Below, piece after piece: positions 9,879 to 20,346 of a DNA stretch of 45,030 bases (position 1 is the first letter of the stretch; each line of letters begins with the position of its first letter). A model generated the notes under the pieces. It worked only from the letters and a program-made list of their open reading frames with translations. It made no database searches and was not told the DNA's origin. Position numbers and translations under genes: made by a program. The stretch covers positions 1-45,030 of the forward strand of contig NZ_FOOK01000029.1 in NCBI RefSeq assembly GCF_900113175.1, read 5' to 3'. The DNA is from Planifilum fulgidum. Lineage in GTDB: Bacteria; Bacillota; Bacilli; Thermoactinomycetales; DSM-44946.

Positions 9879-10934
9879 ATGAAGCGGACGTGGTTGACCA
9901 TCCTGCTTGTTTTCAGCCTGGCACTGATCACCACCCCTCTGCCCGACGGCTGGGTATGGGCTGACAACAAGGTGGAAAAGGCGAAAGAGGAATTGAAGAA
10001 TATCCGGAAGGATAAAAAGGATGTTCAAGAAAAACTGGAAAAAGTGAAAAAGGACATCGAAAAGCAGAAAAAGACATTGAACGAGCTGGAGAAGGACCTG
10101 TACGACACCGAGAAAAAGATCGACAAGATCGAAAAGGAATTGGACCTTCTGAAGGATCAGCTCGGGAAGCGGGAGGAGCTCTTCAAAAACCGGATTCGCC
10201 GGATGTACCAGAGGGGTGAAATGGGGTACATGACGGCGCTTCTGGAGGCCGATTCCTTCCGGGAGTTCCTCGACAAGTTCGAGGCCCTGCGCCTCTTGGT
10301 GAAACAGGATCACTCGGTGCTGGAGGGCTACTTCAAAACCAAGGAAAAATTCGAGAGCGAGAAGCGGAAGCTGACGGCGCTGCAGGAGGAACAGAAAGAG
10401 AAGCGCGATAAAGTGAAGAAGAAATACGACAAACTGGCCAGCACGATGAAGAAACACGAGAAGGAGCTGGCCAAGCTGGAGCACGAGGAAGAGCTGAAGG
10501 AAGCGGAGATCCAACGCATCACCTACCTCACCTCCAATACGGGCAACTTCGCCTATGGCGGGGGGCCCTTGGCATGGCCCGCCAACAGCCGGAGGATCAA
10601 CTCCCCCTACGGACCTCGGGGTGGCAGATATCACTACGGGATTGACATCGACGGAAACCTGGGCGACCCGATCTACGCCGCCGCATCCGGAATCGTCAAG
10701 GAAAGCCGCCCCGCCAGCGGCTATGGCTGGGTGATCGTCATCGACCACGGCAGCGGATTGACCACCGTCTACGGCCACATGTACAGCAGCACCGTCCTGG
10801 TGTCGACCGGCCAACGCGTCAGCAAGGGACAGCGCATCGCCTCCATCGGAAACAACGGACGATCCACCGGTCCCCACCTGCATTTCGAAGTGCGCAAAAA
10901 CGGCAGCCCGCAAAATCCGATGAACTACTACTGA
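9879..10934 (+). CDS. FtsEX-linked coiled-coil/M23 peptidoglycan hydrolase, copy 2
   Basis: This 351-residue paralogue of its neighbours has a signal peptide (about 1-28), a lysine/glutamate-rich coiled coil (29-215) and an M23 domain (about 225-351). Active-site residues are His252 and Asp256 (YHYGIDID), a His in VYGHM, and His333-x-His335 (GPHLHFEV). The shared segment FKNRIRRMYQRGEMGYMTAL in the coiled coil is also found in copies 1 and 3 with small changes. It marks a common regulatory region. The gene starts 48 bases after copy 1 with a GGGGAGAGG ribosome binding site. All three are in one direction with no terminator between them. Confidence 0.9.
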   Translation: MKRTWLTILLVFSLALITTPLPDGWVWADNKVEKAKEELKNIRKDKKDVQEKLEKVKKDIEKQKKTLNELEKDLYDTEKKIDKIEKELDLLKDQLGKREELFKNRIRRMYQRGEMGYMTALLEADSFREFLDKFEALRLLVKQDHSVLEGYFKTKEKFESEKRKLTALQEEQKEKRDKVKKKYDKLASTMKKHEKELAKLEHEEELKEAEIQRITYLTSNTGNFAYGGGPLAWPANSRRINSPYGPRGGRYHYGIDIDGNLGDPIYAAASGIVKESRPASGYGWVIVIDHGSGLTTVYGHMYSSTVLVSTGQRVSKGQRIASIGNNGRSTGPHLHFEVRKNGSPQNPMNYY

Positions 10935-11016
10935 GTCCAAGCGTTCGGGGCGTCCCGGTGTTCCGCGCAGGGGTGAAGGCTCGATGAAACGGCAAACCGA
11001 CAGTGGGGAGAGTATC

Positions 11017-12102
11017 ATGAAGCAGGTATTCACGGTGATCCTCGCCGTTTGTCTCACGATCACGACGGCGGGTCTGGTGCACGCCAACGAGAAGGATCGG
11101 GTGAAACAAGAGCTGGAAAAAATCCAGGAGGACAAAAGCTCCATCAAGAAGGATCTGGACAAGCTGGACGAAGACATCAAAAATAACCGGGATGCGATTC
11201 GAAAAGCGGAAAAGGAAATGATCCGGATCGACAAGGAAATCGCCGTGATCGAAGAAAACATGGAAGAGATAAAGAAGGAAGAGGAAAAGTACAAGAAAAT
11301 TTTCAAAAACCGGATCCGCAAGCTGTACCAGCAGGGCGAAGTCGGTTACATGGTTTCCTTGCTGGAATCCAAATCCTTCGGGGAGTTTCTCGCCCGTTTC
11401 GAATCGATCCGGCTGATCGCCAAACGGGACCACAGCCTGTTTGACAGTTACGCGCGTCTGCGCGAGAAAAAGGAAAAACAGGTGAAACAGCTGCAGGCCC
11501 TTCGCAAGGAACAGGAAAAAGTCGCGGCCGATGCGGAAAAGGCCTATAAAGAGATGCTCCAAGCCGTGAAGGAGAAAAAGGGAGAGCTCGCCGAACTGGA
11601 AAGCCTGGAGTCCATCAAGGAGGCGGAGATTCGGCGCATCAACTTGAGGCTGATCCAAAATAACCAGCTGTCTTTCCCCTATGAGGGCGGTCCGCTGTCA
11701 TGGCCGTCTGCCAGCAAACGGGTGACTTCCACTTTCGGGATGAGATCCCATCCGGTGAGAGGCGGATACCGAATGCACTCCGGCATCGATATCGGGGGGA
11801 GCTACAACACCCCGATTTACGCCGCCGCCTCCGGCGTGGTGGTGGAAAGCCGTTCGAGCGTGGGTTACGGCTGGATCATCGTCATCTATCACGGAAACAA
11901 GGACGGAACGCCCCTGTATACTTGGTATGCCCACAGCTATCCGCACCAGGTGCGCGTCCAGCCTGGGGACGAGGTGAAGCGGGGACAACATATTTCGGGA
12001 ATCGGAAGCTACGGCATGTCCACGGGAAATCACCTGCATTTTGAAGTGCGGATCGGCAAAAACGGTCAAGCGGTCAATCCGATGTCGTATCTCAAAAAGT
12101 AA
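11017..12102 (+). CDS. FtsEX-linked coiled-coil/M23 peptidoglycan hydrolase, copy 3
   Basis: This third tandem paralogue has 361 residues: signal peptide 1-25 (ending VHANE), coiled coil 27-215 and an M23 domain from about 225. Active-site residues are His254 and Asp258 (MHSGIDIG), a His in WYAHSY, and His339-x-His341 (NHLHFEV). The domain has a short extra loop (HGNKDGTPLY) before the third histidine that the other copies lack. I prefer the ATG at 11017 over 10984 because it has GGGGAGAG at the right distance and puts the signal peptide at the N-terminus. A terminator follows directly. Confidence 0.9.
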   Translation: MKQVFTVILAVCLTITTAGLVHANEKDRVKQELEKIQEDKSSIKKDLDKLDEDIKNNRDAIRKAEKEMIRIDKEIAVIEENMEEIKKEEEKYKKIFKNRIRKLYQQGEVGYMVSLLESKSFGEFLARFESIRLIAKRDHSLFDSYARLREKKEKQVKQLQALRKEQEKVAADAEKAYKEMLQAVKEKKGELAELESLESIKEAEIRRINLRLIQNNQLSFPYEGGPLSWPSASKRVTSTFGMRSHPVRGGYRMHSGIDIGGSYNTPIYAAASGVVVESRSSVGYGWIIVIYHGNKDGTPLYTWYAHSYPHQVRVQPGDEVKRGQHISGIGSYGMSTGNHLHFEVRIGKNGQAVNPMSYLKK

Positions 12103-16267: not shown

Positions 16268-17191
16268 ATGCATCATCACCACCATCATCACGGACACGGC
16301 CACCTTGAGGCCCGCCACCGGCGGGAGGAGAACAAAAAGGGACTGGTCATCGCCCTGAGCATCACCGTCGGAATCATGCTTTTGGAGTTTTTCGGGGGAT
16401 TGATCACCAACAGCCTGGCGCTGCTGTCGGATGCCGGACACATGCTGAGCGACGCCGGGTCCCTCGCCCTGAGCCTGGCGGCCATGTGGTTCGCCCTCAA
16501 ACCCCCTTCACCCCGAAAAACATACGGCTTTTACCGTTTTGAGATACTCGCCGCCCTCTTCAACGGCGCGACGCTGTTCATCATTGCGGGATTCATCGTG
16601 TGGGAGGCCGTCGAGCGGTTTCTGGAACCGCCCCGGGTGGCCGGCGAAGCGATGGTGGCCATCGCCGCCGTCGGCCTTCTGGCCAATCTGGCCAGCGCCT
16701 GGTTCCTCGTGCACAAGGGGGACGTAGAGGGGAATGTGAATCTGCGGAGCGCATACCTCCATGTGATCGGAGATGCCCTGGGGTCGGCGGGGGCGATCAT
16801 CGGAGGAATTGCGATGCTCCTGTTTTCCTGGTATTGGGCGGATCCCCTCGTCAGCGTACTGGTGGCGCTGCTGATCCTGAAAAGCGCATGGGGCATCCTC
16901 AACCAGGCCACGCACATCCTGATGGAAGGAACTCCGGCGACGATCGATCATGAAGAAGTGGGAAGGACGCTTCGATCGATTCCGGGGGTGCGGGATGTGC
17001 ACGATTTGCACATTTGGACAATCACCTCCGGGCTGGATTCGCTGAGCTGCCACCTGCTGATCGAAGACGATTGCGACTGCCAGACGATCCTACAGGAGGC
17101 GATCCGCCGCATCGAGGAGAAGTTCCAGATCCGGCACACGACGATCCAGGTGGAGAAGTCCCAGCTCCAGCATCCGGAGATGGAGGTGTGA
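16268..17191 (+). CDS. Cation diffusion facilitator (CzcD-like metal exporter)
   Basis: This 307-residue transporter exchanges cytosolic divalent metal (zinc, cobalt or cadmium) for protons. After the histidine-rich start MHHHHHHHGHGH come six transmembrane helices (about 25-215). The family metal site appears in LLSDAGHMLSDAGSLAL (two Asp and a His in helix 2) and LHVIGDALGSAGAI (His and Asp in helix 5). A cytosolic domain of about 85 residues ends the protein (VRDVHDLHIWTITSG). The ATG at 16268 has AAAGGAGG upstream. It is co-oriented with the ArsR gene, and a strong terminator follows. Confidence 0.93.
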   Translation: MHHHHHHHGHGHLEARHRREENKKGLVIALSITVGIMLLEFFGGLITNSLALLSDAGHMLSDAGSLALSLAAMWFALKPPSPRKTYGFYRFEILAALFNGATLFIIAGFIVWEAVERFLEPPRVAGEAMVAIAAVGLLANLASAWFLVHKGDVEGNVNLRSAYLHVIGDALGSAGAIIGGIAMLLFSWYWADPLVSVLVALLILKSAWGILNQATHILMEGTPATIDHEEVGRTLRSIPGVRDVHDLHIWTITSGLDSLSCHLLIEDDCDCQTILQEAIRRIEEKFQIRHTTIQVEKSQLQHPEMEV

Positions 17192-17481: not shown

Positions 17482-17510
17482 GGAACATGCGTTCGACTGT
17501 CGAATATATG
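17482..17510 (+). promoter_or_regulatory. LexA/DinR (SOS) box and putative promoter of the VOC gene
   Basis: GGAACATGCGTTCG (17482-17495) matches the Bacillus DinR consensus CGAAC-RNRY-GTTCG at 13 of 14 positions. TATATG (17505-17510) could be the -10, placing the box over the -35 region. The core GAACATGCGTTC is identical to that in front of uvrB. Confidence 0.75.
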
Positions 17511-17556
17511 TGCGGATCGATGTTCTTCTTCATTCAACAAAGAAGGAGTGGTTTGT

Positions 17557-17964
17557 CTGAAATTTACGCATGTCCGCCTGCTGGTGAAAAATTATGAGGA
17601 GTGTTTTCGGTTTTATCGCGATGTACTCGGTTTTGAAGTGGGTTGGGGAGACGAGAAGTCGATGTACGCCGATTTCAAAACGGGCGAAGGGGCCGTCATC
17701 GCCCTGTTTGCCCGCACCCACATGGCGAAAGCGATCGGCACCGACAATTTGCCCCTCGATTCCGATTCGATGGACAAGCTGTGCCTGATTTTTCGCGTCG
17801 AAAGCGTGGACGAACAATATCAATCCCTTAAGGAAAAGGGAGTGCAGTTCATTGACGAACCGCACGACCGGAAAGACTGGGGGATTCGGGTCGCCCATTT
17901 CAGAGATCCGGACGGCCATCTCATCGAAATCAACGAACCCATTCAATTTGAACCGTCATCATAG
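17557..17964 (+). CDS. VOC (glyoxalase/bleomycin-resistance fold) protein, SOS-controlled
   Basis: This is a 135-residue single-domain VOC protein. The first half reads KFTHVRLLVKNYEECFRFYRD, VLGFEVGWGD. The second half has the matching beta-alpha module ending VAHFRDPDGHLIEINEP. His at residue 5 and Glu in HLIEINE are the usual metal-ligand positions. The likely start is a CTG at 17557, eight bases after GAAGGAG and at the residue where relatives begin; the alternative GTG at 17548 lies on the ribosome binding site. Between an SOS box and a strong terminator it is a single-gene unit. The substrate is unknown; a role in detoxifying a DNA-damaging compound is inference from its control. Confidence 0.85.
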   Translation: MKFTHVRLLVKNYEECFRFYRDVLGFEVGWGDEKSMYADFKTGEGAVIALFARTHMAKAIGTDNLPLDSDSMDKLCLIFRVESVDEQYQSLKEKGVQFIDEPHDRKDWGIRVAHFRDPDGHLIEINEPIQFEPSS

Positions 17965-18010: not shown

Positions 18011-18036
18011 GACCCGCCCGATGGCGGGTCTTTTTG
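18011..18036 (+). terminator. Terminator of the VOC gene
   Basis: GACCCGCC, CGAT, GGCGGGTC form a perfect eight-base-pair stem followed by TTTTTG. Confidence 0.93.
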
Positions 18037-18124: not shown

Positions 18125-18138
18125 CGAACATGCGTTCT
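18125..18138 (+). promoter_or_regulatory. LexA/DinR (SOS) box upstream of uvrBA
   Basis: CGAACATGCGTTCT matches the DinR consensus at 13 of 14 positions. It lies 226 bases upstream of uvrB. A TAAGAT at 18157-18162 could be the -10 it controls. Confidence 0.85.
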
Positions 18139-18242
18139 TTTCCGATGGAAAATCTGTTAAGATGAATGCAGGGATTTTGCAAAGCGAAACGGCGGCCGAA
18201 CGTCCCGACGGTCTTTCCTTGTGCGGGAATCGGCCTCCCCTG

Positions 18243-18332
18243 TTGAAAGGCGTTTTTTCAAGGGGATAATGAAGAGAAGAATATCCGTCAAATTATGGAA
18301 CCGAAAAGCCCGTCCCGCAACTGTGATATAAT
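18243..18332 (+). promoter_or_regulatory. Additional putative uvrB promoters
   Basis: TTGAAA (18243-18248) and GATAAT (18265-18270) are 16 bases apart. Further on, TGATATAAT (18324-18332) is an extended -10, about 30 bases before uvrB. Neither overlaps the SOS box, so a basal unregulated level is possible. Confidence 0.45.
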
Positions 18333-18363: not shown

Positions 18364-20346
18364 ATGGAGCAGCGCTTTCGCCTGGTGTCCGAATTCGAAC
18401 CCCGGGGAGACCAGCCCAAAGCGATTGAGGAGCTCACCCGAGGGGTGCTCAGCGGGAAGCGGTACCAGACGCTCCTGGGTGCGACCGGAACCGGGAAGAC
18501 TTTCACGATCGCGCACACGATCGCCCGGGTCAACAAGCCGACCCTGGTGATCGCCCACAACAAGACGCTGGCGGCCCAACTGTGCGGAGAGCTGAAGGAG
18601 TTTTTCCCCCACAACGCGGTGGAGTATTTCGTCAGCTACTACGACTATTATCAACCGGAAGCCTATGTCCCGCAGACGGATACTTACATCGAGAAGGACG
18701 CGTCGATCAACGACGAGATCGACAAGCTGCGCCACTCGGCGACCAGTGCCCTGTTCGAGCGGCGGGATGTGATCATCGTCGCCAGCGTGTCCTGCATTTA
18801 CGGCCTGGGTTCGCCGGAGGAGTACCGGGATCAGGTGCTTTCCCTCCGGGTCGGAATGGAGCGGGAGCGGAACGAGATCCTGCGCAAGCTGGTGGATATC
18901 CAGTACACCCGCAACGACATCAATTTTACTCGGGGGACCTTCCGGGTCCGCGGGGACGTTTTGGAGATCTTTCCGGTGGCCCGGAGCGAGCAGGCGGTCC
19001 GGGTGGAGTTTTTCGGCGATGAAATCGAGCGGATTCGGGAAATCGACGTGCTGACGGGGGAAATTATCGGGGATCGGGAGCATGTCGCCATCTTTCCCGC
19101 CTCCCACTATGTCACCGCCCCCGACGTGATGGCCCGCGCCCTCCGGGACATTGAAGCGGAGCTGGAGGAGCGGCTGAAGGAACTGCGCGATCAGGGCAAG
19201 CTGCTGGAGGCGCAGCGGCTGGAGCAGCGGACCCGCTACGACATGGAGATGATGCGGGAGATGGGGTTCTGTTCCGGGATCGAGAACTACTCCCGCCACC
19301 TGGTGGGCAAAAAGCCGGGGGAACCCCCCTACACCCTGCTGGATTATTTCCCCGATGACTACCTGATGATCATCGACGAGTCCCACGTGACCATCCCGCA
19401 GCTGCACGCCATGTACAACGGGGACCGCTCCCGGAAGGAAGTGCTGGTGGAGCACGGTTTCCGCCTGCCCTCGGCCCTGGACAACCGTCCCCTGCGCTTC
19501 GAGGAGTTTGAGGAACGGATCAACCAGGTTATCTTTGTTTCCGCCACTCCCGGGCCCTATGAGCTGGAGAAGGCGCCGGATGTGGTGGAGCAGATCATTC
19601 GTCCGACGGGGCTTCTGGATCCCAAGGTGCACGTCCGCCCGACCCGGGGTCAGATCGACGACCTGATCGGCGAAATCCGCAAGCGCGTCGAGCGGGACGA
19701 GCGGGTGTTGATCACCACCCTGACCAAGAAGATGGCGGAAGACCTGACCGATTACCTCAAGGAAATGGGCATCCGCGTCCGCTACCTCCATTCGGACATC
19801 AAGACCATCGAGCGGATGCAGATTCTGCGGGATCTCCGGCTGGGCGAATTTGACGTGCTCGTCGGGATCAACCTCCTCCGGGAAGGGTTGGACTTGCCGG
19901 AAGTTTCCCTGGTGGCCATCCTGGATGCGGACAAGGAAGGCTTTCTCCGGGCCGAGCGCTCCCTCATCCAGACCATCGGGCGGGCCGCCCGCAACGCCAA
20001 TGGCGAGGTGATCATGTACGCGGACACGATCACCGATTCGATGCGCAAGGCCATCGACGAGACGGAGCGGCGGCGCCGGATCCAGCAGGCCTACAATGAG
20101 AAGCACGGCATCACGCCGCAGACCGTCCGCAAGGCGGTGCGCGAGGTGATCGAAGCCACCAAGGTGGCGGAGGAGAAGGCCCCCTACGGAAAAGTCCTGG
20201 ATGTGCGCAGCATGGGCAAAAAGGAGCGCCGCCAGCTGATCAGCCAACTCGAAAAGGAAATGAAGGAAGCGGCGCGGAAACTGGAGTTCGAGCGGGCCGC
20301 CGAGCTCCGGGACATGATCATCGAGCTGAAGGCGGAAGGAGCTTGA
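18364..20346 (+). CDS. uvrB: Excinuclease ABC subunit B
   Basis: This 660-residue protein is the damage-verifying helicase-like subunit of nucleotide excision repair. Walker A is GATGTGKT (residues 39-46). The beta-hairpin that probes the strand starts at [12 protein letters not shown]. Helicase motifs follow (IDESH for motif [19 protein letters not shown] for motif VI). The C-terminal UVR domain ([16 protein letters not shown]) binds UvrC. The start is an ATG at 18364 with GAGGTGAT upstream. uvrA follows after four bases, so both share the SOS-controlled transcript. Confidence 0.98.

What the first reader, a model, noticed from the sequence alone, without database searches (positions are those of the whole stretch)
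17482..17964. SOS box in front of a VOC (glyoxalase-fold) gene
The box matches the DinR consensus at 13 of 14 bases and shares its core with the uvrBA box 640 bases away. A VOC enzyme in the SOS regulon suggests detoxification or sequestration of a DNA-damaging compound (bleomycin-like drugs, epoxides, aldehydes).
Basis: partly seen in the sequence, partly recalled or inferred. Interest (0 to 1): 0.6.

Follow-up and report, generated by a model that had tools for sequence, protein, structure and literature searches.

The report
DNA-damage-switched drug-binding-type protein gene
A small gene of a drug-binding-like protein family has been inserted beside the DNA-repair genes uvrBA and carries the DNA-damage (SOS) control site, and distant relatives of the gene in other phyla carry their own versions of that site, which suggests cells make this protein when their DNA is under chemical attack.

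Summary
GGAACATGCGTTCG (17482-17495) is a strong LexA/DinR operator: 17.4 bits on a matrix from relatives' uvrB operators, 0.025 such sites expected per 45 kb, in a genome with lexA, recA and boxes at classic SOS genes. The gene (17557-17964, apparent CTG start) is a VOC protein. The uvrBA part needs correction: in 29 of 29 relatives read, the uvrBA operator lies 62-113 bases before uvrB. Here that site has decayed (18297), and the box at 18125 is displaced to -239. Sister genomes lack the VOC gene at this spot, so it was inserted between a cation-efflux gene and uvrBA. Most orthologues lack the box (3 of 51 Firmicutes rows have an exact one, this window included). But boxes recur: Salipaludibacillus, where a DinB-family gene follows, and 7 of 20 Chloroflexota orthologues against 0.67 expected. 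The predicted fold is closest to mitomycin/bleomycin-binding MRD, tied with unassigned VOC proteins. Best reading: a mobile, probably non-enzymatic genotoxin-binding protein repeatedly wired into local SOS regulons. LexA binding, induction and ligand are untested.

The parts
17482..17495 (.). LexA/DinR operator of the VOC gene, GGAACATGCGTTCG
   Evidence: 17.4 bits; expected 0.025 per 45 kb
17501..17514 (.). weak second LexA-like site CGAATATATGTGCG, 19 bases on; may be chance or sit on the -10 region
   Evidence: 2 mismatches; 5.96 bits
17505..17510 (+). possible -10 hexamer TATATG; no convincing sigma-70 promoter was found
17557..17964 (+). VOC-superfamily protein, 135 aa; apparent CTG start behind AAGGAG (GTG 17548 is the alternative)
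18011..18034 (+). probable intrinsic terminator of the VOC gene
18125..18138 (.). second LexA operator CGAACATGCGTTCT, 239 bases before uvrB; followed by TGTTAAGAT (extended -10-like, 18155-18163)
18297..18310 (.). decayed ancestral uvrBA operator (GGAACCGAAAAGCC); sister genomes have GGAACGAGTGTTCC / GGAACGGGTGTTCC here
   Evidence: -6.6 bits
18327..18332 (+). -10 (TATAAT) of the conserved uvrB promoter, shared with sister genomes
18364..20346 (+). uvrB
16268..17191 (+). cation-efflux (CDF) transporter; the left neighbour, also left of uvrB in the sister genomes

Best explanation
A VOC-fold gene was inserted between the CDF transporter gene and uvrBA in this Thermoactinomycetales lineage and is repressed by LexA through the operator at 17482. 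When DNA damage activates RecA and LexA cleaves itself, the protein is made as part of the SOS response. The protein most likely protects by binding, or less likely modifying, a DNA-damaging small molecule, in the manner of MRD, TnmS or TioX. Shown by sequence: the operator, the genome's LexA/RecA system, the insertion, the loss of the old uvrBA operator, and the recurrence of clade-matched LexA boxes on some orthologues. Inferred: LexA binding, induction, and the drug-binding role.
For: Operator strength and rarity. lexA with boxes upstream, recA with a box. The same box type before a DinB-family gene, a YolD gene and a Y-family polymerase. 50 exact palindromes in the genome against 30 for the reversed control. 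Insertion seen against G002 and G001. Boxes on orthologues elsewhere: Salipaludibacillus and a sister, with DinB_2 following in L152. Chloroflexota 7 of 20 within one mismatch against 0.67 expected, 2 exact against 0.07; GAAC ranks first of 256 half-sites. lexA genes of three of those genomes carry the same motif. Fold nearest MRD, Z 15.5. One relative lies beside streptogramin-resistance genes on a Priestia plasmid.
Against: Most orthologues have no box: in the Firmicutes rows 3 of 51 have an exact one, counting this window and two near-identical Salipaludibacillus-type genes; with the window left out, 2 of 50. Allowing one mismatch, Firmicutes outside the window rank GAAC only 40th of 256 half-sites (2 seen, 0.8 expected). 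No clear sigma-70 promoter before the gene. A CTG start may mean weak translation. Fold matches are tied with unassigned VOC proteins, and enzymes are not far behind. No induction, binding or ligand data.
Confidence: 0.6

Rival explanations
1. The gene is LexA-controlled, but the protein is an enzyme (a thiol transferase or glyoxalase-like isomerase) that detoxifies aldehydes or electrophiles, comparable to FosB or the DinB-type bacillithiol transferases.
For: The VOC fold includes FosB and glyoxalase I, Z 12-13. H5 in 33 of 44 and E124 in 43 of 44 rows. In L152 the gene is followed by a DinB_2 gene, a superfamily that includes thiol transferases (PMC10693628, passages).
Against: All NCBIfam enzyme models score far below their cut-offs. 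No conserved histidine or glutamate in columns 75-77, where the third VOC ligand would be expected (mapping recalled).
Confidence: 0.25
2. The box at 17482 is non-functional: the inserted segment happened to carry or gain LexA-like palindromes, and the VOC gene is transcribed independently of DNA damage.
For: No clear promoter. The nearest orthologues lack boxes. 28 of 49 classified exact palindromes in the genome fall inside genes by a crude gene finder.
Against: Score at the level of true SOS boxes, 0.025 expected per 45 kb. Position 61 bases before the gene. Boxes on distant orthologues.
Confidence: 0.12
3. The pair of boxes mainly serves uvrBA: after the -66 operator decayed, LexA control moved upstream, and the VOC gene is a passenger.
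For: The old operator is decayed here and only here among the 30 loci read. The 18125 box is followed by an extended -10-like TGTTAAGAT.
Against: A terminator-like hairpin lies between the VOC gene and the 18125 box. The old uvrB -10 is intact. The 17482 box lies at the VOC gene, not at uvrB.
Confidence: 0.1

Closest known systems
LexA (DinR) SOS regulon of Bacillus-type Firmicutes
   Same: Operator of the GAACN4GTTC type in front of the gene; lexA, recA, a Y-family polymerase, yolD and DinB-family genes of this genome carry such boxes.
   Different: A VOC gene is not among the members known to me (recalled); the searches listed no paper whose title or abstract start reports a LexA-controlled VOC gene.
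Mycobacterium tuberculosis SigG regulon (Rv0887c, Rv0911)
   Same: Glyoxalase/bleomycin-resistance-fold genes induced by SigG; Rv0887c is induced by mitomycin C in a SigG-dependent way (PMC3776920, passages).
   Different: Controlled by a sigma factor and stated not to belong to the SOS pathway.
SiwR locus of actinobacteria
   Same: A genotoxic-stress regulator with DinB-superfamily genes and, in some genomes, a glyoxalase-like (pfam18029) gene (PMC10693628, passages); compare the VOC-DinB pair in L152.
   Different: WYL activator instead of LexA; a different VOC family model.
Drug-sequestering VOC proteins (MRD for mitomycin, TnmS1-3 for tiancimycin, TioX for thiocoraline)
   Same: Best fold matches include MRD (Z 15.5) and its bleomycin complexes, TnmS2 and TioX; the sequestration role is described in PMC6804068 (passages).
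   Different: About 20% identity; those genes are described from antibiotic clusters of producers, this one lies beside uvrBA with a LexA operator.

Membership tests
LexA/SOS regulon | LexA and RecA encoded in the genome | tested here: met
LexA/SOS regulon | LexA operator at the gene, of the type seen at known SOS genes of the same genome and its relatives | tested here: met
LexA/SOS regulon | Operator conserved before orthologues | tested here: inconclusive
   absent in nearest orthologues, exact in 3 of 51 Firmicutes rows with the window counted, 7 of 20 Chloroflexota within one mismatch
LexA/SOS regulon | LexA binding and damage induction | not testable with these tools
   needs gel-shift and expression data
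VOC superfamily | Profile match over curated cut-off | tested here: met
   PF00903 71.3 bits against 20.6
VOC superfamily | Paired beta-alpha-beta-beta-beta fold | tested here: met
   model pLDDT 93.7, matches across VOC structures
Metal-dependent VOC enzymes (glyoxalase I, FosA/FosB) | Equivalog score over cut-off | tested here: not met
   FosB 28.2 against 171, glyoxalase I 29.2 against 120
Metal-dependent VOC enzymes (glyoxalase I, FosA/FosB) | Complete conserved metal-ligand set | tested here: inconclusive
   H5 in 33 of 44, E124 in 43 of 44, no conserved ligand in columns 75-77; column mapping recalled
MRD/TnmS-type drug-binding VOC proteins | Closest fold | tested here: inconclusive
   MRD ranks first, Z 15.5, but is tied with 4mym at 15.3
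MRD/TnmS-type drug-binding VOC proteins | Binds a DNA-damaging drug | not testable with these tools
   needs protein and ligand

The most novel reading that the evidence does not exclude
One mobile VOC family is a genotoxin-binding shield that has been connected independently to the local SOS repressor in several phyla (Bacillota twice, Chloroflexota several times, and possibly Tolypothrichaceae-type cyanobacteria with the cyanobacterial box type), sometimes with a DinB-family partner. In this genome its arrival beside uvrBA went with loss and relocation of the repair operon's own LexA operator.
Probability: 0.4. Interest if true: 0.62.

Novelty: new member of a known kind. Interest (0 to 1): 0.45.

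Why it matters
SOS regulons are mostly described as repair, mutagenesis and division-control sets. A drug-binding-type protein placed repeatedly under LexA would add chemical protection, removing the damaging agent and not only the damage. It also gives a tractable way to find natural genotoxins, by asking what this family binds.

Tried and rejected
Cross-phylum conservation as a simple rule was rejected: most orthologues have no box; among the cyanobacterial rows only Hassallia has a cyanobacterial-type site (1 of 45; the Spirirestis copy L141 has the same site but an in-frame stop and was dropped); and the one-mismatch scan over all 125 rows ranks GAAC only 19th of 256. Promoter duplication as the source of the twin boxes was not supported: apart from the 12-base core, the repeat scan found no further match between the two box regions. 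An RNA element was sought and none reached its gathering score. No tRNA in the window. No PADLOC match. The four plasmid-borne relatives read (of 13 listed) have no box in 200 bases upstream. The first scan of genome contigs with the single protein found no relative; alignment A2 was used for the second.

Rows dropped before counts: of 142 rows, L141, L178, L218 and L219 (stops or frame in the first 110 residues) and 11 duplicates, leaving 127; L190 and L234 (truncated matches), L204 (same gene as L177) and L017-L020 (same genes as L106, L143, L161, L168) were not entered. The Firmicutes count includes the window row; one search left out the window and L208 (same gene as L129); one search also left out L206 (same gene as L111). 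In one search only the 30 loci returned (window plus 29 relatives) of 41 genomes with uvrB were read. In one search, 49 of 50 exact palindromes were classified; one lay too near a locus end. One search gave wrong upstream positions for the minus-strand loci and L075 and was replaced.

Full report
OBSERVATION. The box GGAACATGCGTTCG lies at 17482-17495, one mismatch from CGAACNNNNGTTYG, and shares the 12-base core GAACATGCGTTC with 18126-18137, 643 bases on. With a matrix built from 29 relatives' uvrB operators and 6 SOS boxes of this genome, the two sites score 17.4 and 17.7 bits; the third best in the window scores 9.4; a first-order Markov null gives 0.025 sites per 45 kb at the VOC score. 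The matrix does not contain either of the two sites. The loose two-mismatch scan of the window is not enriched (79 against 97.7).

GENOME. The genome holds lexA (C17, 263 bits) and recA (C43, 572 bits). Boxes lie before lexA (two), recA, a Y-family polymerase, a YolD gene and a DinB-family gene. Exact GAACN4GTTC occurs 50 times against 30 for the reversed pattern; of 49 classified by a crude gene finder, 21 are intergenic. The SOS operator of this organism is therefore of Bacillus type. Four 'same order' genomes (G009, G024, G028, G029) have matches on contigs of the same length as Marinithermofilum and Shimazuella records, so the window belongs to the Thermoactinomycetales (inference; the genus is not named).

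THE GENE. 17557-17964 encodes 135 residues of the VOC superfamily (PF00903). The reading frame has CTG at 17557 behind AAGGAG, where the near relatives have TTG or ATG, so a CTG start is likely. No convincing promoter was found. A terminator-like hairpin follows at about 18011-18034.

THE INSERTION AND THE uvrBA OPERATOR. In the two genomes of the same genus the CDF gene and uvrB are neighbours with a short spacer and no VOC gene; neither genome has a VOC match at E 1e-15, one of them being only 67% complete. In 29 of 29 relatives read, the uvrBA box lies 62-113 bases before the uvrB start. In the window this site reads GGAACCGAAAAGCC at 18297 and scores -6.6 bits, while the uvrB -10 is conserved. 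So the 18125 box is not the ancestral operator, and the two strong boxes flank the inserted gene. What 18125 drives is open; an extended -10-like TGTTAAGAT follows it.

ORTHOLOGUES. The family is scattered over Bacillota, Chloroflexota, Cyanobacteriota, Desulfobacterota and others, and on plasmids of Cytobacillus, Priestia, Bacteroides, Citrobacter and an archaeon. In the class of the window 16 of 398 genomes have a match at E 1e-30. The nearest orthologues have no box. Exact boxes occur in 3 of 51 Firmicutes rows: the window, Salipaludibacillus L152 and its near-copy L212; in L152 the box is followed after one base by TTATAAT, and a DinB_2 gene follows the VOC gene. Without the window, Firmicutes have 2 of 50 exact, and GAAC ranks 40th of 256 half-sites at one mismatch.

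CHLOROFLEXOTA. 7 of 20 orthologues have a box within one mismatch in the last 100 bases (L112, L129, L150, L177, L205, L207, L210; named), against 0.67 expected from the same loci; 2 are exact against 0.07 (Poisson 6e-6 and 0.002). GAAC ranks first of 256 half-sites in this group (21 rows). Several boxes overlap a -10 element. Of the four genes newly found, after the pattern had been noticed, three have a box (L205, L207, L210) and one has not (L209). lexA genes in three of these genomes carry GAACN4GTTC-type sites, one of them with the GTGCT half-site seen at the VOC genes. In the class of G484, 2 of 47 genomes have the gene, both with a box. On the tree the box label needs 7 changes among Firmicutes and Chloroflexota rows, on few columns and with many open forks, so the number of origins is uncertain.

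CYANOBACTERIA. Hassallia L114 and Spirirestis L141 have AGTACATATGTACA 37 bases before the gene, and their lexA genes have AGTACTAATGTTCT. This is 1 of 45 kept rows plus one dropped row and is only a lead.

PROTEIN. The model is confident (pLDDT 93.7). Best fold rows are MRD (1kll, Z 15.5), 4mym (15.3), MRD-bleomycin complexes (15.2, 14.9), 2qnt, 2rbb, TnmS2, UcmS2, 3vcx, TioX. Rows within 1 are tied. R7, E33, M56, W108 and R116 are invariant in 44 rows; H5 in 33 and E124 in 43; no conserved histidine or glutamate in columns 75-77. That argues against a classic metal site, with the column mapping recalled. NCBIfam enzyme models are far below cut-off. A relative on a Priestia plasmid lies beside virginiamycin B lyase and a Vat acetyltransferase gene.

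LITERATURE. SigG of M. tuberculosis controls two VOC-fold genes, one shown to be mitomycin-induced through SigG (PMC3776920, passages). SiwR controls DinB-family genes under genotoxic stress and in some genomes lies near a glyoxalase-like gene (PMC10693628, passages). The gut SOS meta-regulon paper does not contain the words glyoxalase or bleomycin in its main text (PMC3998124, passages). Drug-sequestering VOC proteins are listed in PMC6804068 (passages). The searches listed no paper on a LexA-controlled VOC gene as judged by titles and abstract starts; the library holds open-licence papers only.

VERDICT. The operator is real and very probably a LexA site. The gene is an inserted, horizontally moving VOC gene. 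Its SOS control is a local arrangement that recurs elsewhere, most clearly in Chloroflexota. The protective drug-binding role is the most likely function but is inferred.

Noticed in passing
18297-18310: The ancestral uvrBA LexA operator has decayed in this genome although it is present in all 29 relatives read; uvrBA may be constitutive or re-wired.
   Followed up: partly
L049 2040-2271 (G000:C12): A LexA-type box 18 bases before a gene for a 67-residue WYL-like protein (just under Pfam's cut-off), a possible further SOS member.
   Followed up: partly
L069 1954-1967 (G000:C53) and L001 1500-1513 (G000:C1): Strong boxes 288 bases before a TPR-like protein gene and between two convergent genes; the latter has the same core GAACATGCGTTC.
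   Followed up: no
9879-12102: Two neighbouring genes with similar coiled-coil plus M23-peptidase-like proteins in tandem (by reading the translations; families not searched).
   Followed up: no
L259 (Priestia megaterium plasmid pBMG1): A VOC relative lies directly after virginiamycin B lyase and Vat streptogramin acetyltransferase genes.
   Followed up: partly
L150 2905-3838: Two tandem VOC-like genes behind one LexA-like box in a Chloroflexota MAG (second one judged by its translation only).
   Followed up: no
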